Source of the DNA: a virus
Strand: one strand, 5' to 3'
DNA: 38,652 nt
IMG/VR virus record: IMGVR_UViG_3300033991_000115
Span: 1 to 38,652 of that record
Part shown: piece after piece, positions 21,725 through 38,652 of the stretch
Layout of the letters: each line of letters begins with the position of its first letter
Numbering within the stretch: the stretch's first letter is position 1
Notes under the pieces: generated by a model
Told to the model about the DNA's origin: nothing
Databases searched by the model: none
What the model saw: only the letters and a program-made list of their open reading frames with translations
Position numbers and translations under genes: made by a program

Positions 21725-21726
21725 GG

Positions 21727-21836
21727 GGACGGAAGGCACCCGTCCACCCGCCAAGGAGTCCGGGCACCTTCCGGCCACCGGGCATACGAGTTTCGTATGC
21801 CCGTCTTCATTGTCCGTTCCCATTTAGAACGGGGGT
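21727..21836 (+). promoter_or_regulatory. hairpin-rich leader between promoter and integrase
   Basis: This leader contains a perfect 10-bp stem with a 3-base loop (GGGCATACGA / TCGTATGCCC, 21779-21801). It also has a second stem (CCGTTC ... GAACGG, about 21813-21831) that would hold the ribosome binding site region, and an imperfect pair between GGAAGGCACCCG and CGGGCACCTTCC. There is no clear T run, so these look more like control of translation or RNA stability than terminators. The integrase starts at ATG 21840. Confidence 0.5.
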
Positions 21837-21839
21837 TCT

Positions 21840-22766
21840 ATGAAACTCTCAGAGGCATTACGGGAGTTTGACCTGTCGCTGGTCGGGAATGCCGCGCCCT
21901 CCACGCGCCGGTGGTATCAGCAACGGCTGGGGGCGTTAGCGGAGTTCCTGGGGGACGTGGGGGTGGAGGAGGTCACGATCACGCGGTTGAGGGAGTGGCG
22001 GGCGGCGCTGGTGGGACGGGAGGCGCGGTGGAGTGAGCATCCGACACGGCCGGAGGTAAAAGGCGGGTTGTCATCCCACACGGTGCGGGGCTACATTCGC
22101 GCAGTGCGGGCGTTCGGGAACTGGCTGGAGAGGGAAGGTATGGTGGTCAGCAGCCCGGCTGCCAGGCTCAGGCTCCCGCCCGTGGGCCAGAATCCTCCGA
22201 AGGCGGTTAGCCCGGACGATGTATTGCGGATGCTAGAGGTCGCCGATGTAAGGGACCGGGCGATTGTGTGCTTCCTGGCCTGCACGGGTTGCAGGGTGGG
22301 CGGGTTATGTGATCTGCGGCTGTCCGACCTGGAGTTGGGGCACGATCCACCACGGGCGATGGTGAGGGAGAAGGGTCGCGGGGGTAAGAAGTCGAGGTTG
22401 GTATTTTGTGGTCCTCAGACGGTAGAAGCGCTATGGGCATGGTTGTCCGTGTGCTCAGATCAGATAGCGGGGGATGAAGATCACGTTTTCCTGGGGCAGC
22501 GCGGGCCGCTGACGGAGGCTGGAGTATACCAGGTACTGCGCCGGTTGGCAAAGAAGGCGGGGATCAGGGGAAGATTTAACCCGCACGCTTTCCGGCATGC
22601 ATTTGCGCGGGGTGCGTTGGAGAACGGGGCGGACCTGGGAACGGTCAGCCAGTTGCTGGGGCATTCCAGCGTCACTGTGACGAATGAGTTCTATGGGCGG
22701 TGGACGCAGGATGAGTTGGGGCGGCGGCATTCGGAGTTTGGCTGGTTTGAGAAGCGGGTGAAGTGA
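21840..22766 (+). CDS. int: tyrosine site-specific integrase
   Basis: This 308-residue recombinase integrates and excises the prophage. An N-terminal SAM-like core-binding domain (about 5-105) is followed by the catalytic domain. The catalytic residues are visible: R152 (CTGCRVGG), K178 (REKGRGGKKS), H249-x-x-R252 (PHAFRHAF), H275 (LLGHSS) and the nucleophile Y285 (NEFYGRW). Translation starts at ATG 21840 behind GAACGGGGG. The attP core lies 75 bp beyond the stop, and the Xis-like gene is on the opposite strand beyond it, the standard arrangement. The TRD-like tail is XerC/D length. Confidence 0.9.
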   Translation: MKLSEALREFDLSLVGNAAPSTRRWYQQRLGALAEFLGDVGVEEVTITRLREWRAALVGREARWSEHPTRPEVKGGLSSHTVRGYIRAVRAFGNWLEREGMVVSSPAARLRLPPVGQNPPKAVSPDDVLRMLEVADVRDRAIVCFLACTGCRVGGLCDLRLSDLELGHDPPRAMVREKGRGGKKSRLVFCGPQTVEALWAWLSVCSDQIAGDEDHVFLGQRGPLTEAGVYQVLRRLAKKAGIRGRFNPHAFRHAFARGALENGADLGTVSQLLGHSSVTVTNEFYGRWTQDELGRRHSEFGWFEKRVK

Positions 22767-26046: not shown

Positions 26047-26543
26047 TGCAGGGTAGGAAGCCTAAACCGATACCTGTAAAGATGCTCGCTGGCAACCCCG
26101 GTCACCGACCGGTGAATCCAGCTGAGCCCCACTTCAGGATTCCACACCGCATACCCAGCCCGCCCACATTCCTGGAAGAATCTGCCGCAGAAGTTTGGCG
26201 TGACCTCGGCAGGCTCTTGCTCAATGCGGGGCTGTTCACGGTGGTGGATCGGTATGCGCTGGCAATGTTCTGCGTGGCGGCGGGGAGGTGGATTGAGGCG
26301 GAGCGCACCATGATGCACTCAGGCGGGCCAATCCTGGAGAGCGAGAATGGCGGGCTGTACCAAAATCCGTGGCTCCACGTGGCGAACAGGGCCTGGGGAC
26401 AGATGCGGCAGATGCTCAGTGAGTTCGGCCTCACGCCGGCGGAGCGTTCACGGCTGAAAGTGGCTACGGAGGCGGGGGAGCCGAGCCTCGCTGAGATGCT
26501 GTTCCAGATGAGCGTACCGGATGAGCGCGATGAGCGCGATTGA
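26046..26543 (+). CDS. terS: terminase small subunit (P27 family)
   Basis: This 165-residue protein recognises the packaging site. The start is GTG 26046, whose first base is the last of an 11-G run; the purine-rich upstream serves as ribosome binding site. The P27-type N-terminus (MQGRKPKPIPVKMLAGNPGHRP) is followed by PPTFLEESAAEVWRDLGRLL. A helix follows (DRYALAMFCVAAGRWIEAE) and a C-terminal region LTPAERSRLKVA. The order HNH, terS, terL is that of HK97-type phages. The 3' end overlaps terL by 23 bp. Confidence 0.85.
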   Translation: MQGRKPKPIPVKMLAGNPGHRPVNPAEPHFRIPHRIPSPPTFLEESAAEVWRDLGRLLLNAGLFTVVDRYALAMFCVAAGRWIEAERTMMHSGGPILESENGGLYQNPWLHVANRAWGQMRQMLSEFGLTPAERSRLKVATEAGEPSLAEMLFQMSVPDERDERD

Positions 26544-28209
26544 GTTCACGGGCCGACAGTACATTGACAATGTGATGAACGGGAAAGTCGCGGCGTGCCG
26601 GTGGGTGCGGCTGGCATGCGAACGGCACCTGCGCGATCTGGAATCGGGATCCGAGCGCGGATTGAGATTTGATGAACAGGCGGCGCGCCAAGCGATTGTG
26701 TTTTTCTCGCTGTTGAAACATTCCAAGGGCGAATGGGCTGGCCGGCCGCTTCACTTGGAACCGTGGCAGCAGTTCGTGATCGCGTCGCTGTTCGGGTGGC
26801 GCCGGGCGGATGGTACGCGGCGGTTCCGGACGTCATACCTGGAGTGTGGGAGGAAGAACGGGAAGACGACGATGGCGGCCGGCCTCGGGCTGTATTTGAT
26901 GCTGGCGGATGGGGAGCCGGGCGCGGAGGTCTATAGCGTAGCTACGAAACGGGACCAGGCGCGGCTATCACATGCCGAAGCCACACGGATGGCGAAGGCG
27001 TCACCACCGATACGCCGTGAGGTCAACATTGTCCGGGACAACATTCACATCATGGATACGGCGTCGAAGTTTGAGCCGCTTGGGGCAGATGCCGACACGA
27101 TGGACGGGCTGAACGTGCACGGGGCGCTGGTGGATGAGGTGCACGCCCACAAGACACGCGAGGTGTGGGATACCATCGAAACGGCAACGGGCAGCCGGCG
27201 GCAACCGCTGATATTCGCCATCACGACGGCGGGCTATGACCGGGAGACGCTATGCTGGCAGCAGCATGAGTACACGCAGAAGGTGCTCGATAGGGTCATT
27301 GAGGATGATTCATGGTTTGCGATCATCTATACTCTTGACGATGGGGATGATTGGGAGGATGAAGCAACCTGGATCAAGGCCAATCCCAATCTGGGGATCA
27401 GCAAGAAGTGGGACGACATGCGGCGGAAGGCGGCGCGGGCCAGGGAGATGCCCAGCGCGCTCAATGCGTTCCAGCGGCTCGAGCTGAGTATGTGGACACA
27501 GGCGGAGACGAAGTGGATCAGCCTGGAGCACTGGAATGCCTGCGGGCAGGCGGTGGATGCGGGGGGGCTGCGGGGACGAACGTGTTACGGCGGCCTCGAC
27601 CTGTCCAGTAATGTGGACGTGTCGGCGTTTCTGCTGGTGTTTCCTCCCCAGGCAGACGGGGAAGGGTACCAAGTGATCACGCGATTCTGGATCCCGGAGG
27701 AGGCGATGATCGAGCGCAGTCACCGGGACCGGGTGCCGTATGATGTTTGGGTGCGGCAGGGGTTCATCACCGCGACGCCGGGTAACGTGATTGATTACGC
27801 TTGGATCCTGCACCAGGTGGATGAGGATGCGCAGGCATACGATATCCGTGAGGTGGCGTTCGACCGGTGGGGGGCGACGAAGATCGCAACGGAGTTGATG
27901 GAGCGCGGCGGGGAGGATTGGCTGGTACAATTCGGGCAGGGGTTCGTGAGCATGAACCCGCCCATGCGCGAGTTGGAACGGCTGATCCTGGAACATAAAC
28001 TGGCGCATGGGAACAATCCGGTGCTGACCTGGATGGCGAATAACCTGGTGGTGCGGACCGACCCGGCAGGCAACCTGAAGCCGGACAAGGAAAAGAGCAC
28101 GGAGAAGATTGACGGAATGGTGGCGTTGGTGATGGCGCTGGATCGGGCGCTGAGGCATGAGCCGCTGAAGCGGAGCGTATACGAGGAACGGGGCCTGGAG
28201 GTGGCGTGA
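26521..28209 (+). CDS. terL: terminase large subunit
   Basis: This 562-residue motor packages DNA into proheads. The ATPase half has Walker A (GRKNGKTT, residues 110-117) and Walker B (GALVDEVHAH, residues 201-210, with D205/E206). A coupling motif (ITTAGYD) lies near 234. The nuclease half opens with YGGLDLSSNVD (D360) and contains DRWGATKIATEL further on. It ends with EKIDGMVALVMALD, with the typical final Asp. All expected parts for an HK97/phi105-type terminase are present. The start at ATG 26521 lies within terS. Confidence 0.95.
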   Translation: MSAMSAIEFTGRQYIDNVMNGKVAACRWVRLACERHLRDLESGSERGLRFDEQAARQAIVFFSLLKHSKGEWAGRPLHLEPWQQFVIASLFGWRRADGTRRFRTSYLECGRKNGKTTMAAGLGLYLMLADGEPGAEVYSVATKRDQARLSHAEATRMAKASPPIRREVNIVRDNIHIMDTASKFEPLGADADTMDGLNVHGALVDEVHAHKTREVWDTIETATGSRRQPLIFAITTAGYDRETLCWQQHEYTQKVLDRVIEDDSWFAIIYTLDDGDDWEDEATWIKANPNLGISKKWDDMRRKAARAREMPSALNAFQRLELSMWTQAETKWISLEHWNACGQAVDAGGLRGRTCYGGLDLSSNVDVSAFLLVFPPQADGEGYQVITRFWIPEEAMIERSHRDRVPYDVWVRQGFITATPGNVIDYAWILHQVDEDAQAYDIREVAFDRWGATKIATELMERGGEDWLVQFGQGFVSMNPPMRELERLILEHKLAHGNNPVLTWMANNLVVRTDPAGNLKPDKEKSTEKIDGMVALVMALDRALRHEPLKRSVYEERGLEVA

Positions 28210-28367
28210 TGGATGAGCAACAGAAGTTGAAAAAGATCGCTGACCTGTTGAGGGTGGTGGTCCGCAAGCGGGCACAGGCCAAGCGGACGCGGGGCTCGGT
28301 CCGCGCTGCGAAACTGCGGGCTGAGGCGGCAGAACTGGAACTTAAGGTAGCAAAACTCAGGAGGTAA
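28209..28367 (+). CDS. small helical protein between terminase and head genes (52 aa)
   Basis: The start ATG 28209 overlaps the terL stop by one base (TGATG). The 52-residue product is a highly charged coiled helix (MDEQQKLKKIADLLRVVV, RKRAQAKRTRG, AKLRAEAAELELKVAKLRR). The last codons (AGGAGG) also form the ribosome binding site for the next gene at 28369. Tight coupling supports it as real. Function is unknown. Confidence 0.65.
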   Translation: MDEQQKLKKIADLLRVVVRKRAQAKRTRGSVRAAKLRAEAAELELKVAKLRR

Positions 28368-28368
28368 C

Positions 28369-28611
28369 ATGGTCATCAAATTGGGCGAGAAGGTCACGGA
28401 TTCGATCAGCGGATTCTCTGGTATTGCGACTGCGCGGACTGAATATCTGTTCGGGTGTGTGCGCGTGCTGGTTGAGCCTACCGCCCTAGTGGACGGGAAA
28501 CTCGCGGAAGGCGAATGGTTCGATGAGCAGCGTCTGGCGATGGATAGCGATGCGCAGACCGGTGGGCCGCAAGCAGCGCCGATTGCGCGGAGAGATGCTC
28601 CGAAGCGATGA
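28369..28611 (+). CDS. conserved small phage protein (ISGFxG type)
   Basis: The protein has 80 residues from ATG 28369 behind AGGAGG. The pattern KLGEKVTDSISGFSGIATAR, then TEYLFGCVRVLVEP, and EWFDEQRL is a widely distributed small phage protein. It is probably one small beta barrel. The role is not established; its position before the portal gene suggests a structural or assembly function. Its end overlaps the next start by 4 bp. Confidence 0.7.
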   Translation: MVIKLGEKVTDSISGFSGIATARTEYLFGCVRVLVEPTALVDGKLAEGEWFDEQRLAMDSDAQTGGPQAAPIARRDAPKR

Positions 28612-28820
28612 GACTCTTCGATCGCTACCCGACCTTGCGGCGGGTGATCGTGAATACGAAGACCGACCGAGCGTTTCGCGGGATGCTGTGGCGGAAGCGG
28701 CGCGGTTATCTGGTGCTGCGCAATGCGGAGATGCTGCGGGGGAAGGGTGAGACGGTGCCGGTAGACGGGGAGGTCGTGGTGCCCGCTGAGAATGTGGATT
28801 TTATCCAGGTGGTGGGCTGA
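28608..28820 (+). CDS. conserved small phage protein upstream of portal (70 aa)
   Basis: It starts at ATG 28608 overlapping the preceding stop and ends at TGA 28818-28820, overlapping the portal start. The protein is basic, with a strand-rich pattern (LRRVIVNTKTDRAFRGMLWR, KRRGYLVLRNAEML, GEVVVPAENVDFIQVVG). Proteins with this pattern are often seen before portal genes in long-tailed phages, but the function is not known. It may bind DNA or the portal ring. Confidence 0.65.
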   Translation: MRLFDRYPTLRRVIVNTKTDRAFRGMLWRKRRGYLVLRNAEMLRGKGETVPVDGEVVVPAENVDFIQVVG

Positions 28821-30772
28821 TGCCTGTGGTGCAGAGCATTGGGTCGCTGACGGATCTGCAGCCGGGATGGTGGCCGGTCGCAAACTACGGTTCGCTGCGG
28901 CTGTACGACCAGTATTCATACGACTACGCCACAATGTACCGGACGCAGCCGAACGTCCGCACATGCGTTGACTTCCTCGCGCGGAACATTGCGCAGTTGG
29001 GGCTGCATGTGTTCCGGCGGGTGAGTGATACGGACCGGGTGCGATTGACAGATCATCCGCTGGCGGTGGTATTGGGCCAGCCGCTACCGGCAGAGTTCAA
29101 GGTGACTTATTACCGGTTGGTCGAGGCCCTGGTCAGCGATCTCGGGGTATACTTTAACGCTTACTGGCTGAAGGTGCGGAGCGAGGGTACGCCAGCGGGG
29201 TTGCTGCGTATCCCGCCGCCCTATGTGGTCATTGGGGGTGGCCTGGTGCCGACTGGATACAAGATCACGGTCGGGGGGAAGATAATCGCCGTGGCGCCCG
29301 AGGGGATTGTGCACTTTCGCGGATACAATCCTGAGAATCCCATCAGCGGCTTGTCGCCGCTGGAGACGCTGCGGCGGATTCTGGCGGAGGAGGCCGCGGC
29401 GGGCGACTACCGCGAACACTTCTGGCGAAATGCGGCGCGGATGGGCGGGGTGATCGAGCGGCCGCCCAATGCGCCGGAATGGAGCGAGCCGGCGCGGGCG
29501 CGGTTCAAGCAGGAGTTCGAGGCGCTCTACAGCGGGACTGAGGCGAGCGGAAAGACGGCGATCCTGGAGGAGGGAATGACGTGGCGGCCAGGATCATTCA
29601 ACCCGCAGGAATCGGAGTACCTGGCCGGACGCAAATTGACGCGGGAGGAATGCGCCAGGGCGTATCACATCCCCTTGCCGATGGTCGGAATCCTCGATAA
29701 TGCGACGTTCAGCAATATCCGAGAGCAACACAAGAATCTGTACCAGGATAGCCTCGGGCCGTGGCTGGCGATGATCGAGCAAGATATCATGTTGCAGTTA
29801 CTGCCGGAGTTCGGGGACACAGAGGGGGTATACTGCGAGTTCAACATCGCCGAGAAACTGGCGGGGGCATTCGATGAGCAGGTGACCGCGCTACAGGCAG
29901 CCGTGGGCAGGCCGTGGATGACGGCGAATGAGGCGCGGGCGCGGCTGAATCTGCCTGCGCTGAGCGGGGATGCCAACGCATTGGTGACGCCCCTCAACGT
30001 CCTGGTCGGGGCGCAGGCCAGCCCGCGCGATACTGCCCCACCGAAGGCGTTGGAGGCGGGCAGCCAACTTCTGCCGCAGAAATCCGCGCGGGCGCTGGAT
30101 TCGCATCTCCCCGAACTGCGCGAACGGCACCAGGAGAAGTGGGTTGCGACGCTGACGCGGCACTATAAGCGGCAGGAGGCGGCGGTGATGAGCCGCTTGC
30201 CGGAGGCGCAGGTGGTAGGGGATGGGAAGGGCGACCTGGGGGGCGTGTGGTGGGACGAGGAGCGGTGGGATCGGGAGTTGGGCGAGGATTTGCTGCGGCT
30301 GAATGTCCTCACGGCCGGAGCCTGGGCGGGGGAGTTCGCAGGACGGCTGGGGGCGGAAATATCCGAGGATAGGATGCTGCCGTGGCTGCAGGAGCACAGT
30401 CGGCTGCAGGCGACGTACATCAACCGGCAGACGCGCGATCAATTGCAGGAGGCGCTCAGGGACCCCGAGCCACGCGAGGCGGTCAAGGATTTGTTCCTGA
30501 CGGCCATCTCGGTTTGGGCGCTACGGGAGGCGATAAGCGCCATCACGACGGCGGCCAACTTCGGGGCGAATGAGGCGGCGCAGGCCGGTGGGTTGACCCG
30601 CAAAACCTGGCGGGTGAATTCCAGCAATCCGCGAGCGGCGCATCTGGCGATGGACGGGGAGACGGTGGGAATCCGGGACAGGTTCAGCAACGGGATGCGC
30701 TGGCCGGGGGACCCGGCGGGCGGGGCGGAGAACAACGCGAACTGTCAGTGTTCGGTGGAGTTCGGGAGATAG
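28820..30772 (+). CDS. portal protein fused to a MuF-like minor head domain
   Basis: This 650-residue protein starts at ATG 28820. Residues about 20-420 are an HK97-type portal (TMYRTQPNVRTCVDFLARNI, IVHFRGYNPENPISGLSPLE, then LTREECARAYHIPLPMVG and FSNIREQHKNLYQ), the dodecameric DNA gate. After a Pro/Ala linker (about 410-430) the last 220 residues form a MuF/gp7-like minor head domain, ending KTWRVNSSNPRAAHLAMDGE ... NANCQCSVEF. Two usually separate genes are joined here, so minor head protein is made in fixed ratio with portal. No stop or frameshift separates them. Confidence 0.85.
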   Translation: MPVVQSIGSLTDLQPGWWPVANYGSLRLYDQYSYDYATMYRTQPNVRTCVDFLARNIAQLGLHVFRRVSDTDRVRLTDHPLAVVLGQPLPAEFKVTYYRLVEALVSDLGVYFNAYWLKVRSEGTPAGLLRIPPPYVVIGGGLVPTGYKITVGGKIIAVAPEGIVHFRGYNPENPISGLSPLETLRRILAEEAAAGDYREHFWRNAARMGGVIERPPNAPEWSEPARARFKQEFEALYSGTEASGKTAILEEGMTWRPGSFNPQESEYLAGRKLTREECARAYHIPLPMVGILDNATFSNIREQHKNLYQDSLGPWLAMIEQDIMLQLLPEFGDTEGVYCEFNIAEKLAGAFDEQVTALQAAVGRPWMTANEARARLNLPALSGDANALVTPLNVLVGAQASPRDTAPPKALEAGSQLLPQKSARALDSHLPELRERHQEKWVATLTRHYKRQEAAVMSRLPEAQVVGDGKGDLGGVWWDEERWDRELGEDLLRLNVLTAGAWAGEFAGRLGAEISEDRMLPWLQEHSRLQATYINRQTRDQLQEALRDPEPREAVKDLFLTAISVWALREAISAITTAANFGANEAAQAGGLTRKTWRVNSSNPRAAHLAMDGETVGIRDRFSNGMRWPGDPAGGAENNANCQCSVEFGR

Positions 30773-30783
30773 GAGCGGAAATG

Positions 30784-30820
30784 GGACGCGGATTAACGCG
30801 GATTAACGCGGATCGGAATG
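30784..30820 (+). repeat. GCGGATTAAC junction repeat, copy 5
   Basis: GGAC, three units of GCGGATTAAC type and CGGAATGG fill the start of the gap between the portal gene and the protease gene. Here the closing segment is further from the next gene, which has its own ribosome binding site (AGGAGG near 30865). Confidence 0.9.
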
Positions 30821-30877
30821 GACGATTTTTGAGCAATTTTGCAGGTTTCTATTGTAGAGTAGTAGGAGGTAGGGGAG

Positions 30878-31822
30878 ATGGAGACGAAAGTTTTTCGAGC
30901 GCCGATTCAGATTAAGGCGGATGGAGAGCAGGGCGAGTTTTCGGCGGTATTCGCCACGCTGGGTGTGGTGGACCTCGACGATGATGTGACGATCCCGGGC
31001 GCTTTTGGATCGCAGCGGGTGCTGATCGAGCCGTGGAACCACAATCTGCAGGCTCCGCCAATTGGCAAGGGCACGATCACGGAGGATGGCAACCAGGCGC
31101 TGGTGAGCGCGCGCTTCTTCCTGGACACAGAAGCGGGGCGCGAGCACTATGCGGTGGTCAAGGCGCTGGAGGATATGCAGGAGTGGAGTTACTCGTTCCG
31201 CATCGTAGAGGCCGATGTGGGGATGTTTGAGGGCCAGCAGGTGCGGTTTCTGCGCAGGCTGGAGGTGATTGGGGTCTCGCCCGTGACCCAGGGCGCTGGA
31301 ATCGCCACTCATACGGTGGCGATCAAGGGGGCGAAGGCAGCAATCGGGGCGCATTCAACGGCGACGACTGATGCGGCCTGGGATGGGCCAGCGAATGAGG
31401 CGCGGGCGCGCAGTGGAGAGAGCGAAGCGTACTACCGGCGCATCTATGCCTGGCGCGATCCGGACGGCGATCCGGCAGTGAAATCCTCGTATCGGTTCGT
31501 CCACCACATGGTGGCGGCTGGAGGGGAGCCGGGGGCGGCTAATGTCCGGGGCTGCCAGACGGGAATCGGGGTGTTAAATGGTGGCCGGGGCGGGACGACG
31601 ATCCCGGATGGCGACCGGCGCGGGGTGTGGAATCATCTGGCGAAGCATCTGCGGGATGCGGACCTGGAGCCGCCAGAGTTGAAGGCGATCAAAGGCGCCG
31701 GGGACGGCGCTTCTGATGACGCGGGGGATGGGACTGAAGGCGAGGCCGGGGACGGTAAGCCGAGCGGGGCATCACCGCGTGTGGTAGCGAGTTTGGTCGA
31801 GATCGAGCTTCTGGAGGGATAG
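30878..31822 (+). CDS. prohead protease (HK97-type) with C-terminal extension
   Basis: This 314-residue protein begins at ATG 30878. Residues about 1-160 match the HK97-type serine protease (GEFSAVFATLGVVDLDDDV, AFGS....PWNHN with the catalytic His, and FLDTEAGREHYAVVKALEDM, then EWSYSFRI with the catalytic Ser). It cleaves the scaffold part of capsid protein during maturation. Residues about 170-290 form an extension (SESEAYYRRIYAW-like, then ANVRGCQTGIGVLNGGRGGT, GVWNHLAKHLRDADLEPPEL) seen in several other phage proteases, role unknown. The final part is Gly/Asp-rich. The stop sits at repeat copy 6. Confidence 0.85.
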   Translation: METKVFRAPIQIKADGEQGEFSAVFATLGVVDLDDDVTIPGAFGSQRVLIEPWNHNLQAPPIGKGTITEDGNQALVSARFFLDTEAGREHYAVVKALEDMQEWSYSFRIVEADVGMFEGQQVRFLRRLEVIGVSPVTQGAGIATHTVAIKGAKAAIGAHSTATTDAAWDGPANEARARSGESEAYYRRIYAWRDPDGDPAVKSSYRFVHHMVAAGGEPGAANVRGCQTGIGVLNGGRGGTTIPDGDRRGVWNHLAKHLRDADLEPPELKAIKGAGDGASDDAGDGTEGEAGDGKPSGASPRVVASLVEIELLEG

Positions 31823-31854
31823 AACGCGGATCGCAGGACAGAAGCGGATCGGGA
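31822..31854 (+). repeat. GCGGATTAAC junction repeat, degenerate copy 6
   Basis: A shorter and diverged copy (AACGCGGATCGCAGGACAGAAGCGGATCGGGAAAG) lies right after the protease stop. Two GCGGATC words remain. It is the least well preserved copy of the family. Confidence 0.6.
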
Positions 31855-31878
31855 AAGTCAAATCTATGGAGGTGTAGA

Positions 31879-33141
31879 GTGGATCTGAAGGAACTACTCA
31901 AAAAACTGCTGCTGGATGCACGGGCGATCTGTGATCTGGCAGAGAAGGAGAAGCGGGACTTTACCGCTGAGGAACGGGAGCAGGTCGGCAAACTGCTGGC
32001 GGAGGCGAAGAGTCTCAAGGATCAGATCAAGCAGGAGGAAGGGGATGCTGCGCTGAAGCAGGCGGTCCTCGACCTGGGCGCGGGTGTGGAACTGGCGGAG
32101 GCGAAGGGCGCTCCCCAGCCGAGTGTACGGCCGGGCAGGGGACCGACTATCGGTGAGCAGTTCGTCAACTCGCCGGAATGGAAGGCATGGCTAAAGTCGG
32201 TTGCGCCCTCGGGCAGCATCCCGGATAGCCGGAAGGGGCTGCAGAGTCCGCCGGTCGAGTTCAAGGAGCTGATCAGCGGCGCGGACGTGACGAGCGCCGG
32301 GGCGTTCGTGACGCCGGACTATACCGGCATCTACGAGCCGATCGGGCGCTATCCGGTCACGCTGCGCAACCTGATCAGTGTGCGGCAGACGACCAGCGAC
32401 ACGGTCGAGTTCGTCCGCCAGACGGCGCAGGTCACGCAGGCTGCGCCGACGCCGGAAGCGAACGTGAAGGAGCCGACCGGCGCGACCGGGGAGATCACCG
32501 GCGAGAAGCCGCAAGGTGAGATCAGTTTCGAGCGGGTCTACGAGACTGTGAAGACTATCGCGGTGTACGTCGGGGCGACGAAGCGGGCGTTGAGCGATGC
32601 GGCGCAGATCCGGGGGATCATCGACCAGGAACTCCGTGAGGACCTGATCGACGAACTGGAGAACCAACTGTTCAACGGCAACGGCGTGGGGGAGAACTTT
32701 ACCGGCCTCAACAACCAGACGGGGACGCTGATCCAGGCGTTCAACACCAACCAACTCATCACGTGCCGGCAGGCCATCACGACGCTGCTGGTGACCGGGC
32801 GCCAGAGTCCGACCGCATTCGTGTTCCATCCGACGGATTGGGAGGCGGTGGACCTGCTGCGGGATACGACGGGCAGGTTCCTGCGGGGCGATCCGTTCGG
32901 GGCCGGGCCGAATACGCTGTGGGGCGTGCCGGTGGTGCAGAGTTTCCATCACACGGCCGGGACGGCGTGGCTGGCGAACTGGCGGAAGGCTGTCCTCTGG
33001 GACAGGCAGCAAGCGACGATCAGCGCGACGGACAGCCACAGCGATTGGTTCATCAGGAACCTGGTGGCGATCCTGGCTGAGATGCGCGCGGCATTCGGGC
33101 TGATCCGGCCCAGCGCGTTCATCAACATTGAGCTGGCGTAA
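31879..33141 (+). CDS. major capsid protein (HK97 fold)
   Basis: The 420-residue protein starts at GTG 31879 (GGAGGTG upstream). Residues 1-~90 are a helical delta/scaffold domain (LKELLKKLLLDARAICDLAE, KSLKDQIKQEEGD) removed by the protease. The core has the HK97 landmarks: GAFVTPDYTGIYEPIGR, LRNLISVRQTTSDTVEF, GEISFERVYETVKTIAVYVG, LRDTTGRFLRGDPFG, and NLVAILAEMRAAFGLIRPSAF. It follows the protease directly and precedes the transferase block. It is the most likely receiver of any glycan made by that block. Confidence 0.9.
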   Translation: MDLKELLKKLLLDARAICDLAEKEKRDFTAEEREQVGKLLAEAKSLKDQIKQEEGDAALKQAVLDLGAGVELAEAKGAPQPSVRPGRGPTIGEQFVNSPEWKAWLKSVAPSGSIPDSRKGLQSPPVEFKELISGADVTSAGAFVTPDYTGIYEPIGRYPVTLRNLISVRQTTSDTVEFVRQTAQVTQAAPTPEANVKEPTGATGEITGEKPQGEISFERVYETVKTIAVYVGATKRALSDAAQIRGIIDQELREDLIDELENQLFNGNGVGENFTGLNNQTGTLIQAFNTNQLITCRQAITTLLVTGRQSPTAFVFHPTDWEAVDLLRDTTGRFLRGDPFGAGPNTLWGVPVVQSFHHTAGTAWLANWRKAVLWDRQQATISATDSHSDWFIRNLVAILAEMRAAFGLIRPSAFINIELA

Positions 33142-33146
33142 CCGAT

Positions 33147-34901
33147 ATGGGGCTGCTGATCAACATCGTGTGCCGGAATCTCAACGACGACCGAGTCATT
33201 CCGCGCTTCGCGCGCTACCTACGGGATCATCTCGGCTGGACGTTGACGGCAGCGCCCGACCCGCACGCGGACATCGTATATCTGTCCGGGTATTTTGAAG
33301 CACAACTGTGCAAGCTGTGGCCGAGCGTGCCGGTCGCGGCGATGTTCACGCACCGGGAGGAGGAGCCGCCGGGCAATGAGAAGGCGCGGCTGTTCGACTC
33401 CGTAGCGAAGCGGGTAGACCTGCGGGTGGCAATGTGCCGCTTATATCGGGAGCCGCTGAGCAAGTTCGGGCCGACGATCCAGCCGCCGTTGCCGCTGGAG
33501 CGGGATAAATTCGTGATTGCAGGAGGCAAGAGGCAGGACGCAGGACGCAGGAAACTTGTCGTGGGCTTCAGCGGATACACGTACCGCAATCATCGGAAGG
33601 GGGAGGACCTGGTCGCGGCCGTGGTGGGGTCGAAGATCGGGAGGAGCGTCGAATGGCGGGCTTCGGGGCGGGGCTGGCCAGTGCCGATGAAGCGCTACTC
33701 CTGGGCGGAGATGCCGTCCTTCTTCCAGGGGCTGGACGTGTTCGTGTGCCCCTCGCGGGTGGAGGGCGGCCCAATGCCGGTGCTGGAGGCGCTGGCATGC
33801 GGGGTGCGGGTGGTGATCCCGCGCGGTGTGGGGATTCTGGACGAGTTGCGAGATGCGCCAGGCATCCACAGGTACGAGCGGGGGAATCCCAAGGCGCTGG
33901 TAGCCGCTTTGGGCGCGGCAGTTTCGGAAAAGTTCGACCGCGAGGCGCTACGCGCGGTCACGGAGCCGTACAGCGTAGCGGCATGGGTGAAGGCGCACGC
34001 GAAGGCGATTCCGGCGCTGGCGCAGGGCCCGGAACGGGTGGACGCGGGGATCGAGGGGGTGGTGGAGGTGCCGGTCAAACGGACAACGCCGACTATCAAG
34101 GCGGTGAAGCCGCGTGTTTATAACACGGGGAGCACGCGCGGAATCTACATGGTGGCGTTTGGGAGGCCGTCGCGGAAGAGCGGGAAAAGGCTCCTGCTGA
34201 GCATCAAGAAGCACATGCCGGACATTCCGGTATGTGTCTGCGGTGCCAGCAAGCTCGGGGGCGAAGACGTGTTTATCCGGCAGCCGGACTCGGACGTAGG
34301 GGGACGGCGGGCGAAGCTCAAGGCTTATGAGTTGGCACCGGCTGAATGGAAGGCGGTCCTCTACCTGGATGCGGATACGCTGGTGACGGCGCCGATCTAC
34401 CGCTATTTTGAGTGGATCGAAGCGGGGTGGGAGTTCGTGATCTGCAAAGACCCGCATCTGATGGACACGATGCACGCTTTCGAGAGGCGGAACAACCGGC
34501 TGGAATTGAGGCAGATCGAGCAGGAGATCAGTACGCTCCATGCGTTACAAATTAATGGCGGCGTGTGGGCGTTTCAGCACGACAATGCGCGGGTGGCGGG
34601 CTTCTTCCGGCGCTGGCAGCAAGAGTGGGAACAGTATGCGCAGCGGGATCAGGGGGCGCTCTTGAGGGCGCTGTACGCGGATCCGCTGAAGGTGCTCTGG
34701 CTTGGCAATGAATGGAACACATTCGAGAAGTATTGCAAGGGCCTCACCACGGCGGGGCTGATGCATTATCCGGGGGATGCCAGAAGGTGGAAGGGAATGA
34801 TCCCGGGGCGGATAGATTCGCCCGAGGCGTGGCGGATGGTGCGGCAGTGGGAACGGGAGCATGCGGCGCCGGGAACACAACGGAAGAAGAAGGGCAAATG
34901 A
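33147..34901 (+). CDS. bifunctional glycosyltransferase (GT-B plus GT-A domain)
   Basis: This 584-residue protein starts at ATG 33147, 5 bp after the capsid gene. Residues about 1-310 are a GT-B fold transferase of GT4 type with the EX7E motif at E206/E214 (RVEGGPMPVLEALACG) and a GFSGYTYRNHRKGEDLV segment. Residues about 325-584 are a second transferase domain of GT-A type (GT8-like) with the DxD-type sequence LDADT (D408-A-D410) and ALQINGGVWAF. Together they could add two sugars. A linker at about residues 124-135 is encoded by a second type of repeat (33518-33552). Location among capsid genes suggests virion glycosylation. Confidence 0.75.
   Translation: MGLLINIVCRNLNDDRVIPRFARYLRDHLGWTLTAAPDPHADIVYLSGYFEAQLCKLWPSVPVAAMFTHREEEPPGNEKARLFDSVAKRVDLRVAMCRLYREPLSKFGPTIQPPLPLERDKFVIAGGKRQDAGRRKLVVGFSGYTYRNHRKGEDLVAAVVGSKIGRSVEWRASGRGWPVPMKRYSWAEMPSFFQGLDVFVCPSRVEGGPMPVLEALACGVRVVIPRGVGILDELRDAPGIHRYERGNPKALVAALGAAVSEKFDREALRAVTEPYSVAAWVKAHAKAIPALAQGPERVDAGIEGVVEVPVKRTTPTIKAVKPRVYNTGSTRGIYMVAFGRPSRKSGKRLLLSIKKHMPDIPVCVCGASKLGGEDVFIRQPDSDVGGRRAKLKAYELAPAEWKAVLYLDADTLVTAPIYRYFEWIEAGWEFVICKDPHLMDTMHAFERRNNRLELRQIEQEISTLHALQINGGVWAFQHDNARVAGFFRRWQQEWEQYAQRDQGALLRALYADPLKVLWLGNEWNTFEKYCKGLTTAGLMHYPGDARRWKGMIPGRIDSPEAWRMVRQWEREHAAPGTQRKKKGK
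33518..33552 (+). repeat. AGGCAGGACGCAGG repeat element inside the glycosyltransferase gene
   Basis: Short units (GCAGGAGGCA, AGAGGCAGGAC, GCAGGAC, GCAGGA) form a low-complexity element distinct from the GCGGATTAAC family. It lies within the glycosyltransferase frame and encodes a small basic linker (GGKRQDAGRRK). The insertion has kept the reading frame. Confidence 0.6.
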
Positions 34902-35521
34902 AAGCAAGCGGGACACAGGAGGAATTGTGGAGCGAATTATCTACTCCGGCGATTGCGGCGGTGCTGACCGCTACGGAGCACGTGCGCGGCAAGATGCTGC
35001 CTTACCAGTACGCGGCGCTTTATCGCCTGGCCACTCAATATGATGGGGGATGCATCCTGGACATTGGCGGTTTTCACGGACGATCAGCGCTGATTCTCTC
35101 AGCGGCGGCTCCCAAAGCAGAAATCATCAGTCTCGAGCCCTACCGCGCTGAGGAAATCCGCAAGAACGTTGCGCATTGTGGCAATGTGGAAGTGCTGCGA
35201 ACATGGTCCTGGAAGTACCTTAGCTACTGCAGCATAGCCTGGGATATGGTCCTGGTTGACGGCAATCACAAGAGGGTGGAAGCGGATTTGCCCTGGTTCC
35301 ACTGGCTGACCGAGGGCGGTTTGATTCTATTCCACGATTACACACCGGCCGAGGCGGCCCGTGGCCAGTATCCGCAGGTCTACGCTGCGGTCAATCGGCT
35401 GGCCGAGCATCTGGGAAGAGAACCGGATGTACTCATCCAGGATGATGATCTGATCGGCATGGCCGGCTTTTACCGGCGAAATGGGGAGAGACTGTGGCGA
35501 CTTTTACCTGGAACGGGCTGA
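34898..35521 (+). CDS. class I SAM-dependent methyltransferase
   Basis: The 207-residue protein starts at ATG 34898, overlapping the previous stop (ATGA). AdoMet motif I is LDIGGFHGRSAL (about 54-65), an acidic residue follows in SLEPYR (E80), and the later motif is MVLVDGNHKRV (about 113-123), with a closing LILFHDYTP. This layout (VDGxH and FHDY) matches the Methyltransf_24 family, whose members act on small molecules and sugars. Its neighbours suggest O-methylation of a glycan on the virion. The substrate cannot be read directly. Confidence 0.75.
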   Translation: MKASGTQEELWSELSTPAIAAVLTATEHVRGKMLPYQYAALYRLATQYDGGCILDIGGFHGRSALILSAAAPKAEIISLEPYRAEEIRKNVAHCGNVEVLRTWSWKYLSYCSIAWDMVLVDGNHKRVEADLPWFHWLTEGGLILFHDYTPAEAARGQYPQVYAAVNRLAEHLGREPDVLIQDDDLIGMAGFYRRNGERLWRLLPGTG

Positions 35522-36111
35522 CGCTGGCATATTTCAACCATTCCTACAACCACACGGCGCTGAATATGCGGTGCGTGGAGATTCCCGTCGTACGATGGTT
35601 CCTGGGGCAATGTGGGGAGGGGGCGCGCATCCTGGAGGTCGGGAATGTCCTAAGTCATTATGGCCCGGTGACCTGGCCGGTGGTGGATTTGTATGAGAAA
35701 GGGGCGATCAATGCGGACGTGATGTGTTGGGAGCCGCAGGAGCCGGTTGATTTGCTGATCAGCATTTCAACGATCGAGCACATTGGCTTTGGGAAGTACA
35801 AGAAGACGACGGCGCCGACGCGGCCCAGCCTGGTGCTGGCGCGGTTCCGGTCGTTCCTGGCGGAGGGCGGGCAGGCGGTGGTGACTGCGCCGGCGGGCTA
35901 CAATCCGGTCCTCGATGCGGAATTGAGTGCGGGGACGCTGGGGGCAGATCGGACGTGGTTCATGCGGGTGACAGAGAGGCGGATGTGGCACGAATGCACG
36001 ATGGAGCAGGCGCTGGCGATGTCGGCCAGGGCGTGCGCGGGGCGGTGGAGCGGGGGATTGGTGGTGCTGAGATTGGATGCGGATTTTCTGGACGCGGATG
36101 AACGCGGATGA
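35494..36111 (+). CDS. methyltransferase-like protein with repeat-encoded C-terminus
   Basis: The start is GTG 35494 within the end of the preceding gene; GGGGAGAG is upstream. The 205-residue product has a class I methyltransferase-like core: ARILEVGNVLSHYG (about 44-57), VVDLYEKG (about 63-70), LISISTIEHIGFG (about 88-100) and a later hydrophobic strand (GQAVVTAPAGYNP). The AdoMet motif is imperfect (EVGNxxS). The last residues, LDADFLDADERG, come from junction repeat copy 7. Substrate unknown; it belongs to the transferase block. Confidence 0.65.
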   Translation: MATFTWNGLTLAYFNHSYNHTALNMRCVEIPVVRWFLGQCGEGARILEVGNVLSHYGPVTWPVVDLYEKGAINADVMCWEPQEPVDLLISISTIEHIGFGKYKKTTAPTRPSLVLARFRSFLAEGGQAVVTAPAGYNPVLDAELSAGTLGADRTWFMRVTERRMWHECTMEQALAMSARACAGRWSGGLVVLRLDADFLDADERG

Positions 36112-36133
36112 ACGCGGATCGGAGGGATAGGAG
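36073..36133 (+). repeat. GCGGATTAAC junction repeat, copy 7
   Basis: This copy reads TTGGATGCGGATTTTCTGGAC, then three GCGGATGAAC units, then CGGAGGGATAGGAG. Its left part encodes the end of the methyltransferase-like protein. The TGA stop lies in the first GATGAAC unit, and the closing GGAGGGATAGGAG provides the ribosome binding site for the sulfotransferase gene. Confidence 0.9.
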
Positions 36134-36889
36134 ATGGTTGTGATCGAGAACGATGAGACGAAGCATGCGGCGCGGCCGGCGGTGATCGTGGCCTCGGTAC
36201 GGAGCGGGGGAACGTTCCTGGCGCATTGTCTGAGCAATCATCCGCAGATTTTCTGTGATCGCGGGGAATCGCTCCACCACACGAGCCTGTGGCACACGCA
36301 TTTGACGGCGGACCGGCGGAAACTGCTCTATTGCCTCACGCACATGCAGGGCTACCGGGTGAGCATGTGCAAACTCACGTATCATCAGGCATTCTCGGAG
36401 GTGTGGGATTACATACGGAGAGTGCCGGTGTTGTGGCTGAGGCGGGAGAATGTGATCCGGCAGGCGGTGAGCGTGATCGTGAACGGGATGGCGCGCGGGG
36501 GGAGGATTCAGCGGCCACAGCATACATTCAGGCGGGTGCAGGACATCCGCGTGAATCTGGGGCCCGAGCTGGTGCTGAGGGCGGCGCGCGGGCTGCTGGA
36601 ACGGGATCAGCAGGCGATGGAACGGCTCGAGGATCTGCGTGCGCTGGCGCTGACTTATGAGGAGATCGTGGGGCCGGCCTCCACGCTGGCGGACGGGGCG
36701 GCGAGGCGGATTTGTGCATTCCTGGGGGTGCGGTACGTGGCGACGCTGGGGTGTGAGTTGACGCGGATCAATGCGCAGCCGCTCAGTGAGATGATCGAGA
36801 ATTGGGACGAGGTACGCAGGGCGATCAAGGGGAGCGAACTCGCTCATTTTTTGGACGCGGATTTTTTGGACGCGGATAAACGCGGATGA
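36134..36889 (+). CDS. sulfotransferase (PAPS-dependent)
   Basis: The 251-residue protein starts at ATG 36134 right after GGAG. It has the two PAPS-binding regions of sulfotransferases: the 5'-phosphosulfate loop VASVRSGGTFLAHCL (about 19-33; the usual lysine is replaced by Gly or Arg) and the 3'-phosphate region VLWLRRENVIRQAVSVI (about 99-115, with R103/R104 and S113). Downstream are ALTYEEIV and, near the end, IENWDEVRRAIKGSEL, typical of this family. It would transfer sulfate from PAPS to a hydroxyl group, here probably a sugar. The last residues (FLDADFLDADKRG) come from repeat copy 8. Confidence 0.75.
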   Translation: MVVIENDETKHAARPAVIVASVRSGGTFLAHCLSNHPQIFCDRGESLHHTSLWHTHLTADRRKLLYCLTHMQGYRVSMCKLTYHQAFSEVWDYIRRVPVLWLRRENVIRQAVSVIVNGMARGGRIQRPQHTFRRVQDIRVNLGPELVLRAARGLLERDQQAMERLEDLRALALTYEEIVGPASTLADGAARRICAFLGVRYVATLGCELTRINAQPLSEMIENWDEVRRAIKGSELAHFLDADFLDADKRG

Positions 36890-36907
36890 ACGCGGATCGG
36901 AAGGATA
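36851..36907 (+). repeat. GCGGATTAAC junction repeat, copy 8
   Basis: TTGGACGCGGATTTTTTGGAC, then GCGGATAAAC, GCGGATGAAC, GCGGAT and CGGAAGGATAGAG. The left part encodes the end of the sulfotransferase. The TGA stop is inside the repeat, and CGGAAGGA supplies the ribosome binding site for the methyltransferase gene at 36911. Confidence 0.9.
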
Positions 36908-36910
36908 GAG

Positions 36911-37399
36911 ATGGATATTCTGAATCTAGGAGCGGGGAACAAGATCATTGCGGGGGCGGTAAATCACGACCTGCGGAAGCACCGGAAAGAGATCGACGTC
37001 GCACACGATTTGAATATCCTCCCCTGGCCATGGGCGGATGAATCGTTCGACGTGATCGTGGCGCGAGCGGTGTTCGAGCACCTGGACAATGATCTGATGG
37101 TCACGCTGAATGAGTGCTGGAGGATACTGAGGCCAGGGGGGAAGCTGGGGATCAAATTGCCGCTGTGGAGTGCGGAGCGGGCGCATGATGACCCGACGCA
37201 CCGGTGGTTTTTCACCATCCGGTCGCTGGATCAATTCTGCCCGGATACGAAACGGGGGCGGCAGTACGCCTTCTACACAGACAGGAAGTGGAAGTTCGTG
37301 AAGAGGCCAAAAGTGAATAAGGCGCAAACGTCCTTTTACGCCACGTTAAGCCCCATTAAGGGCACTTTAGAGGCAGTTAAGGTGGAGAAAGCCGGATGA
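36911..37399 (+). CDS. small SAM-dependent methyltransferase
   Basis: The 162-residue protein begins at ATG 36911. The AdoMet motif ILNLGAGNKI (about 3-12) and the later FDVIVARAVFEHLDND and ECWRILRPGGKLGIKLP segments are those of Methyltransf_11-type enzymes. It is shorter than typical (usually about 230 residues), with little substrate-recognition domain, so it may work with a partner protein. It is the fifth gene of the transferase block. The stop overlaps the next start (ATGA). Confidence 0.75.
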   Translation: MDILNLGAGNKIIAGAVNHDLRKHRKEIDVAHDLNILPWPWADESFDVIVARAVFEHLDNDLMVTLNECWRILRPGGKLGIKLPLWSAERAHDDPTHRWFFTIRSLDQFCPDTKRGRQYAFYTDRKWKFVKRPKVNKAQTSFYATLSPIKGTLEAVKVEKAG

Positions 37400-38139
37400 G
37401 CGATGGATGCGGGATCGTGGTGATGCGGAAGGGCGCAAAAATCTCTATGAGCAATGCGAAGAAATTGCACCTGGAGGTGCGGCAGGGCGGAAGTTGGTCG
37501 CTGCCGTGGGAGCGGACGCTGTTCATTGCCGGGGAGTACACGGTGCCGTGGGACCTGGTGCCGAGCGGGTTCCATTTCTTGCAGCGGTGGGACGCGGCGG
37601 CTCCGCTGTGGCGGTACGGGGTGCTGGCCGCGGACATTGGGACGGATGCGGAGCGGAAACGGACTGTAAAAGTCACATTGGATTTGCGGATTCCCCTCTA
37701 CGAGCCGGCGCTGCTGTTCGTGCAGGCGTCGGAGGCGGGGCGGGCGCTGATGAAGGCGTGGCGGTCGGAATGCCGGCCGGGCGATGACGAGCGGTTGGCG
37801 TTCCTGCGGGCGTTGCACATGGTGAAGCCGAGGTTCTGCGCGCTGCCCAGGTCATGGTTGGCGGAGGAGGAGCGGCGGGCGCGGCAGGATGCGGTGACGG
37901 AGAGGAATATCAGAAAGACAGTGAAACCATTGGTGACAGTGGAAATCGGGGCGGGGCGGTCCGTCAAATGTCACGCGGGAGATGAGGAGAAGGTGCGGGC
38001 CTATTACGCCACGCTGCATGCGGGCAGGGCGGCAGGGGGCAAGAAGAAGCGGGAGAAGGCTGAAGATAAGATGAGGAAGAAGCCAGTGGAGGACAAGGCG
38101 CAGAAGAAGGGGAAGGAGAAGGCAGAGGGCGATGGCTGA
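37396..38139 (+). CDS. unknown protein with glycosyltransferase-like C-terminal half and Lys-rich tail
   Basis: The 247-residue protein starts at ATG 37396, overlapping the previous stop. The central part (YEPALLFVQASEAGRALMKA, then WRSECRPGDDERLAFLRALH, RFCALPRSWL) follows the pattern of the C-terminal half of nucleotide-sugar transferases: a strand with LLF, then a W..C..G.DD.LAF.RALH helix. There is no DxD motif in the N-terminal part, so it is not a complete transferase by eye. The last 40 residues are very rich in Lys/Glu (KKREKAEDKMRKK, EDKAQKKGKEKAEGDG). It may be a partner or degenerate transferase. The 3' end overlaps the connector start by 8 bp. Confidence 0.5.
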   Translation: MSDGCGIVVMRKGAKISMSNAKKLHLEVRQGGSWSLPWERTLFIAGEYTVPWDLVPSGFHFLQRWDAAAPLWRYGVLAADIGTDAERKRTVKVTLDLRIPLYEPALLFVQASEAGRALMKAWRSECRPGDDERLAFLRALHMVKPRFCALPRSWLAEEERRARQDAVTERNIRKTVKPLVTVEIGAGRSVKCHAGDEEKVRAYYATLHAGRAAGGKKKREKAEDKMRKKPVEDKAQKKGKEKAEGDG

Positions 38140-38652
38140 TTTTTGTACGGTGCAGGACGTGGAGAATTTTCTCCAGATCGAGATCACGGCGGACGATAAG
38201 GTGGCGTCTGTCCAGCAGGCAATCACTTGGGCGACGGAGGCGATTCGGAATTATTGCCACCAGCACATCGATCTGGTGACGGATGACGTGATTACGCTGG
38301 ATTGTGCGGGGGGGACACGGGTGTTCCTGCCGGAGTTGCCGGTGGTGGAGGTGTCGGAGGTCGTGGAGGATGGGGAGGTGCTGGTGGAGGGGGCCGAGGA
38401 GGATTATCAATTGGGCCAGCACGGTATCCTCCACCGGGTGGGACAGGATTGGATGGCGGGGATTCAGGTCATTGAGGTGACCTATACACACGGATATGAT
38501 GCCTACGATTCGCTGCCGGATGACATTGTGGCGGTGGCCACCAGGGCGGCGGCCAGGGCGTACCAGGCGGGATTGAAAGCCTCGGAGACGGAGGGGGTGC
38601 CGGGGGTTTCGGCGATGAGCCTGGGGGATTATTCAGTGACTTATTCCAGCGA
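38132..38652 (+). CDS. head-tail connector protein (gp6-like), 5' part
   Basis: This gene encodes the adaptor that docks below the portal in HK97-type siphoviruses. It opens with ATG at 38132, overlapping the preceding gene by 8 bp, and begins MADFCTVQDVENFL, the usual helical N-terminus of this family. A central segment (VTYTHGYDAYDSLPDDIVAVATRAAA) is also typical. It has no stop before the window edge: 173 full codons plus the bases GA remain. Joining base 1 gives GAC, and the frame then runs to TAG at 107-109, for a protein of 209 residues. The intact frame and the family-typical C-terminus across the join show that the two window ends belong together. Confidence 0.85.
   Translation, partial: MADFCTVQDVENFLQIEITADDKVASVQQAITWATEAIRNYCHQHIDLVTDDVITLDCAGGTRVFLPELPVVEVSEVVEDGEVLVEGAEEDYQLGQHGILHRVGQDWMAGIQVIEVTYTHGYDAYDSLPDDIVAVATRAAARAYQAGLKASETEGVPGVSAMSLGDYSVTYSS

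What the first reader, a model, noticed from the sequence alone, without database searches (positions are those of the whole stretch)
33147..38139. Candidate virion-decoration pathway inserted between capsid and connector genes
Six genes in a row encode a two-domain glycosyltransferase (GT-B with EX7E, GT-A with DxD), a Methyltransf_24-like enzyme, a second methyltransferase-like protein, a PAPS-type sulfotransferase, a small Methyltransf_11-like enzyme and a transferase-like protein. They lie in the structural operon exactly between major capsid and connector genes and are translationally coupled (ATGA overlaps). Capsid glycosylation with linked methyltransferases is known in some actinobacteriophages. 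A sulfotransferase in such a block would give sulfated, methylated glycans on a phage capsid, which I do not know to be described. The enzyme families are seen in sequence; the target and the pathway are inferred.
Basis: partly seen in the sequence, partly recalled or inferred. Interest (0 to 1): 0.88.

Follow-up and report, generated by a model that had tools for sequence, protein, structure and literature searches.

The report
Sulfated-glycan gene cassette beside phage capsid
A group of uncultured phages carries, next to the gene for the virus shell, a mix-and-match set of sugar-adding, methyl-adding and (in about a third) sulfate-adding enzymes, which most likely coats the virus particle with a custom glycan; no sulfated coat made by a phage's own enzymes has been reported as far as I could find.

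Summary
Confirmed. The window is a near-complete 38.7 kb temperate-phage record. Between the HK97-type capsid gene and the head-tail adaptor lie six intact genes. They encode a GT4 + GT-A glycosyltransferase, a Methyltransf_24 enzyme, a probable class-I methyltransferase, a PAPS sulfotransferase (Pfam above cut-off; model matches Stf0 at Z 13.1), a Methyltransf_11 enzyme, and a GT-A-fold protein that has lost its DxD metal motif.

The cassette is not a one-off. In 89 non-redundant loci with the glycosyltransferase, the major capsid gene is the next modelled gene upstream in 79 of 82 testable cases. The three exceptions lie in other phage types but still inside the head/neck gene cluster. Between the conserved glycosyltransferase and the GT-A-like gene the contents vary; 14 of 38 complete cassettes not found through the sulfotransferase carry one, from two Pfam families. 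The sulfotransferases were never seen outside the cassette.

Best reading: a modular, virus-encoded virion glycan locus whose product is often sulfated as well as methylated. Enzyme families, linkage and modularity are shown. The acceptor, the glycan structure and sulfation itself are inferred. Phage capsid glycosylation is known; the sulfotransferase module and the O-antigen-locus-like swapping appear undescribed.

The parts
31879..33141 (+). major capsid protein (HK97 fold), likely acceptor of the glycan (inferred)
   Evidence: PF05065 6e-37, phrog_10 3.7e-55; 44-46% identical to Arthrobacter/Gordonia phage capsids
33147..34901 (+). g1: two-domain glycosyltransferase, GT4 (GT-B, E206x7E214) + GT-A (D408xD410)
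   Evidence: PF00534 6.8e-11; motifs invariant in 16 relatives; next downstream of the capsid gene in 79 of 82 testable loci
34898..35521 (+). g2: Methyltransf_24-type AdoMet methyltransferase; ATGA overlap with g1
   Evidence: PF13578 7.3e-10; a homologous domain is fused to a GT-A domain in L027
35494..36111 (+). g3: probable class-I AdoMet methyltransferase
   Evidence: no Pfam/PHROG/NCBIfam hit; hhalign to g5 family 90% over 44 columns; weak CFA/mycolic acid synthase hits; 13 homologues, all in cassettes
36134..36889 (+). g4: PAPS-dependent sulfotransferase (Sulfotransfer_3, Stf0/TPST-like); R23-S-G-G-T27 P-loop, candidate base E45, 3'-phosphate residues R104/S113
   Evidence: PF13469 above cut-off; AlphaFold pLDDT 86.6, best match Stf0 Z 13.1, then TPST, 3-OST, SULT; R23, G25, T27, E45, R104, R109 invariant in 11
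36911..37399 (+). g5: small Methyltransf_11-type methyltransferase
   Evidence: PF08241 8.4e-11, phrog_6636 8e-11; present in 30 of 38 complete cassettes
37396..38139 (+). g6: GT-A-fold protein without DxD, with C-terminal hairpin and Lys-rich tail; last cassette gene
   Evidence: hhalign 99.1%, E 1.3e-18 to GT-A half of g1; pLDDT 87.0, Z about 9 to GT6 enzymes and PBCV-1 capsid GT 2p72; DxD-type motif only in divergent L009/L027 homologues
38132..38652 (+). head-tail adaptor; continues in frame across the record end to TAG at 107-109
   Evidence: phrog_442 6.5e-38; junction read
36092..36119 (+). ACGCGGATNA decamer repeat between g3 and g4, followed by a purine-rich ribosome-binding stretch
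   Evidence: 13 matches in window, 0.02 expected
36870..36897 (+). same decamer repeat between g4 and g5

Best explanation
The block is a virus-encoded virion glycan locus. The late structural transcript makes the head proteins together with soluble enzymes. The bifunctional g1 puts sugars, from nucleotide-sugar donors, on a virion protein, most likely the major capsid protein. Two or three methyltransferases cap hydroxyls, and g4 moves sulfate from PAPS onto the glycan. g6, a GT-A-fold protein that lost its metal site, most likely acts as a non-catalytic partner or targeting subunit. Across related phages the outer parts are exchanged (GT2s, methyltransferases, sulfotransferases of two families, sugar-nucleotide enzymes) while g1 and g6 stay, so different phages would display different coats, much as bacteria vary O-antigens. 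Shown: enzyme families and folds, operon position, conservation, modularity, restriction to phages. Inferred: acceptor, glycan structure, that sulfation occurs, and the benefit (adsorption, shielding, or host surface interactions).
For: Families and folds. Linkage: capsid gene next upstream in 79 of 82 testable loci, 70 within 200 bp. L049 (between terminase and portal), L054 (before the portal, lambda-type capsid) and L104 (after capsid and neck genes, phrog_1005 capsid) keep it inside the head/neck cluster of other phage types. The closest cultured phages have capsid - one small ORF - adaptor, i.e. an empty slot. No membrane-type hydrophobic segment in any of the six (maximum 19-residue Kyte-Doolittle mean 1.49), unlike membrane-bound serotype-conversion systems. 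g1 was not found as a cellular gene in 597 Chloroflexota genomes. All 31 loci with a sulfotransferase of either family hold the g1 cassette, including those fetched by sulfotransferase scans alone. Sulfotransferase presence changes at least 7 times on both the g1 and the capsid tree. The window capsid is nearest L007 (80%) while its g1 is nearest L003 (81%, whose capsid is 64%), so cassette and capsid recombine. MT24-sulfotransferase and MT24-GT-A fusions tie these activities to one product.
Against: No virion has been analysed and there is no cultured member. No capsid insertion or obvious acceptor site is specific to cassette phages. In L049, L054 and L104 the cassette does not touch the capsid gene, so another virion protein could be the target. 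g3 is unproven, and g6 lacks DxD so cannot be an ordinary metal-dependent GT-A enzyme. Operon position alone does not prove the target: other late genes may ride in this slot.
Confidence: 0.68

Rival explanations
1. Surface (serotype) conversion: the enzymes modify the host cell envelope during late infection or lysogeny to block superinfection.
For: The phage is temperate (integrase at 21840-22766). GT plus sulfotransferase loci exist in cell-envelope biosynthesis (Stf0 makes sulfolipid in mycobacteria; own knowledge).
Against: Position in the head operon in essentially all relatives. No flippase, polyprenyl transferase or membrane protein in the block. g1 not found outside phage contigs in 597 Chloroflexota genomes.
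Confidence: 0.12
2. DNA base hypermodification: glycosylated or sulfated bases protect phage DNA.
For: PMC10829341 says GT- and sulfotransferase-based nucleotide modification systems have been reported in phages. The window encodes a Mom-like protein and a DNA methyltransferase elsewhere.
Against: The early genes scanned show no hydroxymethylating or thymidylate-synthase-like enzyme that would make an acceptor base (not every window ORF was scanned). The Mom-like and methylase genes are in the early region on the other strand, the cassette in the late operon. g1 is GT4 + GT-A and matched no DNA glucosyltransferase family.
Confidence: 0.05
3. The cassette decorates a tail, neck or fibre protein rather than the capsid.
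For: Mycobacteriophage enzymes modify both capsid and tail tube (PMC12363180, PMC11600133). In L049, L054 and L104 the cassette is not beside the capsid gene.
Against: Overwhelming adjacency to the capsid gene elsewhere, though adjacency does not prove the substrate.
Confidence: 0.25
4. g4 uses PAPS but its acceptor is a protein tyrosine (TPST-like) of the virion rather than a glycan.
For: TPST structures are the next best fold matches after Stf0 (Z 12.4), and the loop IFCDRGES resembles the TPST catalytic loop (own knowledge).
Against: Stf0 (trehalose sulfotransferase) ranks first and 3-O-sulfotransferases score nearly as high, so the fold does not decide. The gene is found only among glycan enzymes, and a second sulfotransferase family is joined to a methyltransferase domain in one cassette ORF.
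Confidence: 0.12

Closest known systems
Mycobacteriophage virion glycosylation (Che8, Corndog, Myrna; Freeman et al. 2023, as cited in PMC12363180 and PMC11600133)
   Same: Phage-encoded glycosyltransferases, with a linked O-methyltransferase in cluster O, that modify capsid and tail tube proteins.
   Different: Those accounts mention no sulfotransferase. In the related F1 phage Maravista the glycosyltransferases lie near the 3' end of the genome (PMC11256854), not between capsid and adaptor. g1 has no tblastn match at 1e-5 in 50,697 phage records. The primary paper was not readable here.
Chlorovirus PBCV-1 capsid glycosylation
   Same: Virus-encoded glycosyltransferases and methylated glycans on the major capsid protein (own knowledge); g6 model matches the PBCV-1 capsid GT 2p72 at Z 9.1.
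   Different: Eukaryotic large DNA virus with a different capsid fold; a large review of giant-virus glycans mentions neither sulfotransferase nor sulfated glycans (PMC9614988).
Haloarchaeal virus HRPV-1 VP4 glycan (Kandiba et al. 2012, as reported in PMC6137143)
   Same: A prokaryotic virus particle carrying a glycan with a sulfated hexuronic acid.
   Different: Predicted to be made by the host N-glycosylation pathway, on an envelope spike; the later MS of the host protein writes sulfated/phosphorylated.
Sulfotransferases of cyanophages and OM43 phages (PMC10580990)
   Same: PF13469 sulfotransferases in tailed phages.
   Different: Reported as auxiliary genes whose function 'remains unclear'; no capsid-linked cassette is described in the passages read. 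The window g4 has no match in the phage collection at 1e-3.
Stf0 trehalose sulfotransferase
   Same: Best structural match of g4 (Z 13.1, 191 residues, 3.5 A).
   Different: 16% identity; cellular enzyme acting on a disaccharide.

Membership tests
PAPS-dependent sulfotransferase (Sulfotransfer_3) | Pfam PF13469 above curated cut-off | tested here: met
   30.9 bits vs 27 for g4; all 11 homologues match the family
PAPS-dependent sulfotransferase (Sulfotransfer_3) | sulfotransferase fold | tested here: met
   All 50 listed structure matches are sulfotransferases, Z 13.1-10.5
PAPS-dependent sulfotransferase (Sulfotransfer_3) | 5'-phosphosulfate loop and 3'-phosphate Arg/Ser | tested here: met
   R23, G25, T27 and R104 invariant, S113 nearly so in A2; roles assigned by analogy
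PAPS-dependent sulfotransferase (Sulfotransfer_3) | transfers sulfate from PAPS | not testable with these tools
   needs an enzyme assay
Bifunctional GT4 + GT-A glycosyltransferase (g1) | GT4 profile and EX7E; DxD in GT-A half | tested here: met
   PF00534 6.8e-11; E206/E214 and D408/D410 invariant
Active metal-dependent GT-A glycosyltransferase (g6) | DxD metal-binding motif | tested here: not met
   TLFIAGEYTVPW in place of TLYVDADT; DxD-type motif only in L009/L027
Class-I AdoMet methyltransferase (g2, g5) | curated family match | tested here: met
   PF13578, PF08241 above cut-off
Class-I AdoMet methyltransferase (g3) | curated family match or fold | tested here: inconclusive
   no family; partial profile match only
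Phage virion glycosylation system | phage-encoded GTs linked to virion structural genes | tested here: met
   79 of 82 testable loci directly after the capsid gene
Phage virion glycosylation system | glycan on capsid or tail protein of purified virions | not testable with these tools
   no virions; uncultured phage
Serotype conversion (gtrABC-type) system | membrane flippase and membrane glucosyltransferases | tested here: not met
   no membrane-type hydrophobic segment and no such family in the six genes

The most novel reading that the evidence does not exclude
Phages possess a true 'serotype locus' for their own particles: a conserved glycosyltransferase pair framing interchangeable tailoring modules, sulfotransferases recruited from two families among them, that moves between unrelated capsid types and makes sulfated, methylated virion glycans under phage control. 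g6 would be a GT-derived subunit carrying a piece of a head-operon protein and so dock the enzymes on the particle.
Probability: 0.4. Interest if true: 0.87.

Novelty: new variant of a known kind. Interest (0 to 1): 0.78.

Why it matters
Phage capsid glycosylation is known from a handful of mycobacteriophages, and the role of sulfotransferases in phage genomes is stated in the literature to be unclear. A widespread cassette that sits beside the capsid gene, carries sulfotransferases in about a third of cases and swaps its modules gives those genes a testable role, and predicts negatively charged, variable phage coats. It would bear on phage adsorption, particle stability in sediments and biofilms, and how phage particles are recognised. 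It also gives a sequence handle (g1 beside a capsid gene) for finding phages with chemically diverse coats.

Tried and rejected
- g1, g4 and the second sulfotransferase family against 50,697 phage records (tblastn): no match, so no cultured phage could serve as a direct comparison.
- Phmmer and profile searches of g3, g4 and g6 against PDB sequences gave no usable relatives, except weak methyltransferase hits for g3. Folds were needed for g4 and g6.
- A capsid insertion specific to cassette phages as an acceptor site: none seen.
- Host from the ACGCGGATNA repeat: the longer motif is absent from 400 Chloroflexota genomes, and the 28-nt form from five bins that hold cassette contigs. My recollection that it is typical of that phylum was not supported. 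Five of the ten GTDB contigs with g1 come from bins labelled Chloroflexota, so the host stays open.
- Homology of the g6 tail to the small ORF between capsid and adaptor of actinophages: two g6 tails match the stand-alone small ORFs of relatives better than any of 1,000 shuffles (15.5 and 17.3 bits; best shuffle 11.7), a third only just (12.2), but the actinophage proteins score at the level of the best shuffle. Kept as a hint only.
- Corndog records for a direct synteny comparison were not in the collection, and Freeman et al. 2023 is not held.
- DNA-modification and serotype-conversion readings were considered and down-weighted (see rivals).
Full report
The window. The window is the whole of one IMG/VR virus record, 38,652 bases. 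Terminase, portal, protease and capsid genes lie at 26521-33141 and tail genes at the start of the record. The adaptor gene at 38132 runs off the end, and its frame continues without a stop at base 1 to a TAG at 107-109. The record is therefore probably a circularly permuted, nearly complete genome. An integrase at 21840-22766 marks it as temperate.

The six genes. All six ORFs are intact and packed as described. g1 has a GT4 half (PF00534, 6.8e-11) with E206-x7-E214 and a GT-A half with D408-A-D410; these four residues are invariant in 16 relatives. g2 and g5 are AdoMet methyltransferases by Pfam (PF13578, PF08241). g4 passes the Sulfotransfer_3 cut-off and all 11 aligned homologues match that family. 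g3 has no family hit; a partial profile match to g5 (90%, 44 columns) and weak matches to mycolic-acid/cyclopropane synthases around the EHxG motif make a class-I methyltransferase likely. g6 has no family hit, but its profile aligns with the GT-A half of g1 (99.1%, 1.3e-18).

Folds. The AlphaFold model of g4 (pLDDT 86.6) matches Stf0 trehalose sulfotransferase at Z 13.1 (191 residues, 3.5 A), then tyrosylprotein, heparan 3-O- and cytosolic sulfotransferases; all 50 listed entries are sulfotransferases. R23, G25, T27, E45, R104 and R109 are invariant among 11 homologues and S113 nearly so. By analogy these are the PAPS loop, a candidate general base and the 3'-phosphate site (own knowledge of the family). 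The g6 model (pLDDT 87.0) is a GT-A fold, Z about 9 to GT6 enzymes and to the PBCV-1 capsid glycosyltransferase 2p72. In the window and its close relatives the DxD is replaced (TLFIAGEYTVPW), whereas divergent homologues in L009 and L027 keep a DAE/DAD motif. g6 is thus probably a glycosyltransferase-derived protein without metal-dependent activity.

A conserved, modular cassette. Scans of viral contigs and of GTDB genomes with the capsid protein, g1 and g4 gave 89 non-redundant loci with the GT-B half of g1. In 79 of 82 loci with usable upstream sequence the next modelled gene upstream is the major capsid gene, in 70 of them within 200 bp. Of 43 complete cassettes, 36 are followed by the head-tail adaptor model. 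Between g1 and g6 the content varies: 23 different gene sets, with methyltransferases in 41 of 43, GT2 enzymes in 14, UDP-glucose dehydrogenase in 3 and an epimerase in others.

Sulfotransferases. In the 38 complete cassettes that were not fetched through the sulfotransferase alone, 14 carry one: 12 of the g4 family and 2 of Sulfotransfer_4 (PF17784 at 1.2e-31, 1.3e-31 and 2.4e-33 in L009, L077 and L015). L077 carries both families. In L009 a sulfotransferase is joined to a Methyltransf_24 domain in one ORF, and in L027 a GT-A domain is joined to Methyltransf_24. All 31 loci with either sulfotransferase hold the g1 cassette. On trees of g1 and of the capsid protein the g4 family needs at least seven gains or losses, so it is a swappable module.

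Cassette and capsid recombine. The window's capsid is nearest L007 (80% identity), while its g1 is nearest L003 (81%), whose capsid is only 64% identical.

Other phage types. Three loci lack a matching capsid gene just upstream. L049 has the cassette between a terminase and an SPP1-type portal. L054 has it upstream of a lambda-type portal, protease, decoration and capsid set. L104 has it after a phrog_1005 capsid and neck genes. In L052, L079, L080, L136, L137 and L142 the internal order differs (g6 first) but the capsid gene is still the nearest modelled head gene. The block therefore moves between virion types and stays among head/neck genes. The closest cultured phages, such as Arthrobacter phage Abidatro and Gordonia phage Moosehead (capsids about 45% identical), have capsid, one small ORF, adaptor: the empty arrangement.

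Function. None of the six proteins has a membrane-type segment, all act on soluble donors by family, and g1 was not found outside phage contigs in 597 Chloroflexota genomes. pN/pS of 0.21-0.37 against relatives shows that all are maintained. This fits cytoplasmic modification of a virion protein better than change of the host surface. The acceptor is inferred; no capsid insertion marks a site. A DNA-modification role is unlikely: the phage has a separate Mom-like gene and DNA methyltransferase, and no base-hydroxylating enzyme was seen in the genes scanned.

Known and new. Capsid and tail-tube glycosylation by phage enzymes is known for Che8, Corndog and Myrna (PMC12363180, PMC11600133; the primary paper was not held). 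Sulfated hexuronic acid on a virion protein is reported for the archaeal virus HRPV-1, and is thought to be made by the host (PMC6137143). Sulfotransferases in phage genomes are reported with unclear function (PMC10580990). I found no account of a capsid-linked sulfotransferase cassette in the searched open library, which lacks most subscription papers. Novelty is therefore rated as a new variant of a known kind.

Noticed in passing
window 13477-14085 (-): Mom-family protein (PF25680, 4e-11): a possible DNA base modification gene, separate from the glycan cassette; a DNA methyltransferase with a DUF6884-like C-terminus lies at 17794-19071 (-).
   Followed up: no
window 119-146, 494-521, 5069-5096, 10892-10909, 30786-30813, 36092-36119, 36870-36897: Tandem decamer ACGCGGATNA (13 overlapping matches, 0.02 expected) sits mostly at gene boundaries, often followed by a GGAAGGA-type ribosome-binding stretch, and is read into the C-termini of g3 and g4 (LDADFLDAD..). 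Among fetched loci an exact match is found only in L003 (same contig as L061) and one other viral contig (L062).
   Followed up: partly
window 38132-38652 and 1-109: The adaptor gene reads in frame across the record ends through a G-rich stretch, so the record is probably a circularly permuted complete genome.
   Followed up: partly
window 37900-38139; L016:15991-16227, L024:6880-7098, L030:3892-4104 and others: The g6 C-terminus (LVxVEIxPGRFVKCHxGDEEKV plus Lys-rich xxKMRK) resembles a stand-alone small ORF between g6 and the adaptor in relatives, perhaps a head-operon protein fused to g6; resemblance to actinophage small ORFs is weak.
   Followed up: partly
L027:2859-4199, L009:8846-10048: Natural fusions Methyltransf_24 + GT-A and Methyltransf_24 + Sulfotransfer_4 inside the cassette.
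   Followed up: yes
L049 / L073: A contig binned as a Thermoprotei archaeon carries the same sequence as an IMG/VR phage contig with terminase, portal and the cassette; probably mis-binned or an unusual host.
   Followed up: no
window 20882-21823 (-), 14128-15444 (-): A DnaA N-terminal-domain protein and an FtsK/SpoIIIE-type ATPase in the early region.
   Followed up: no
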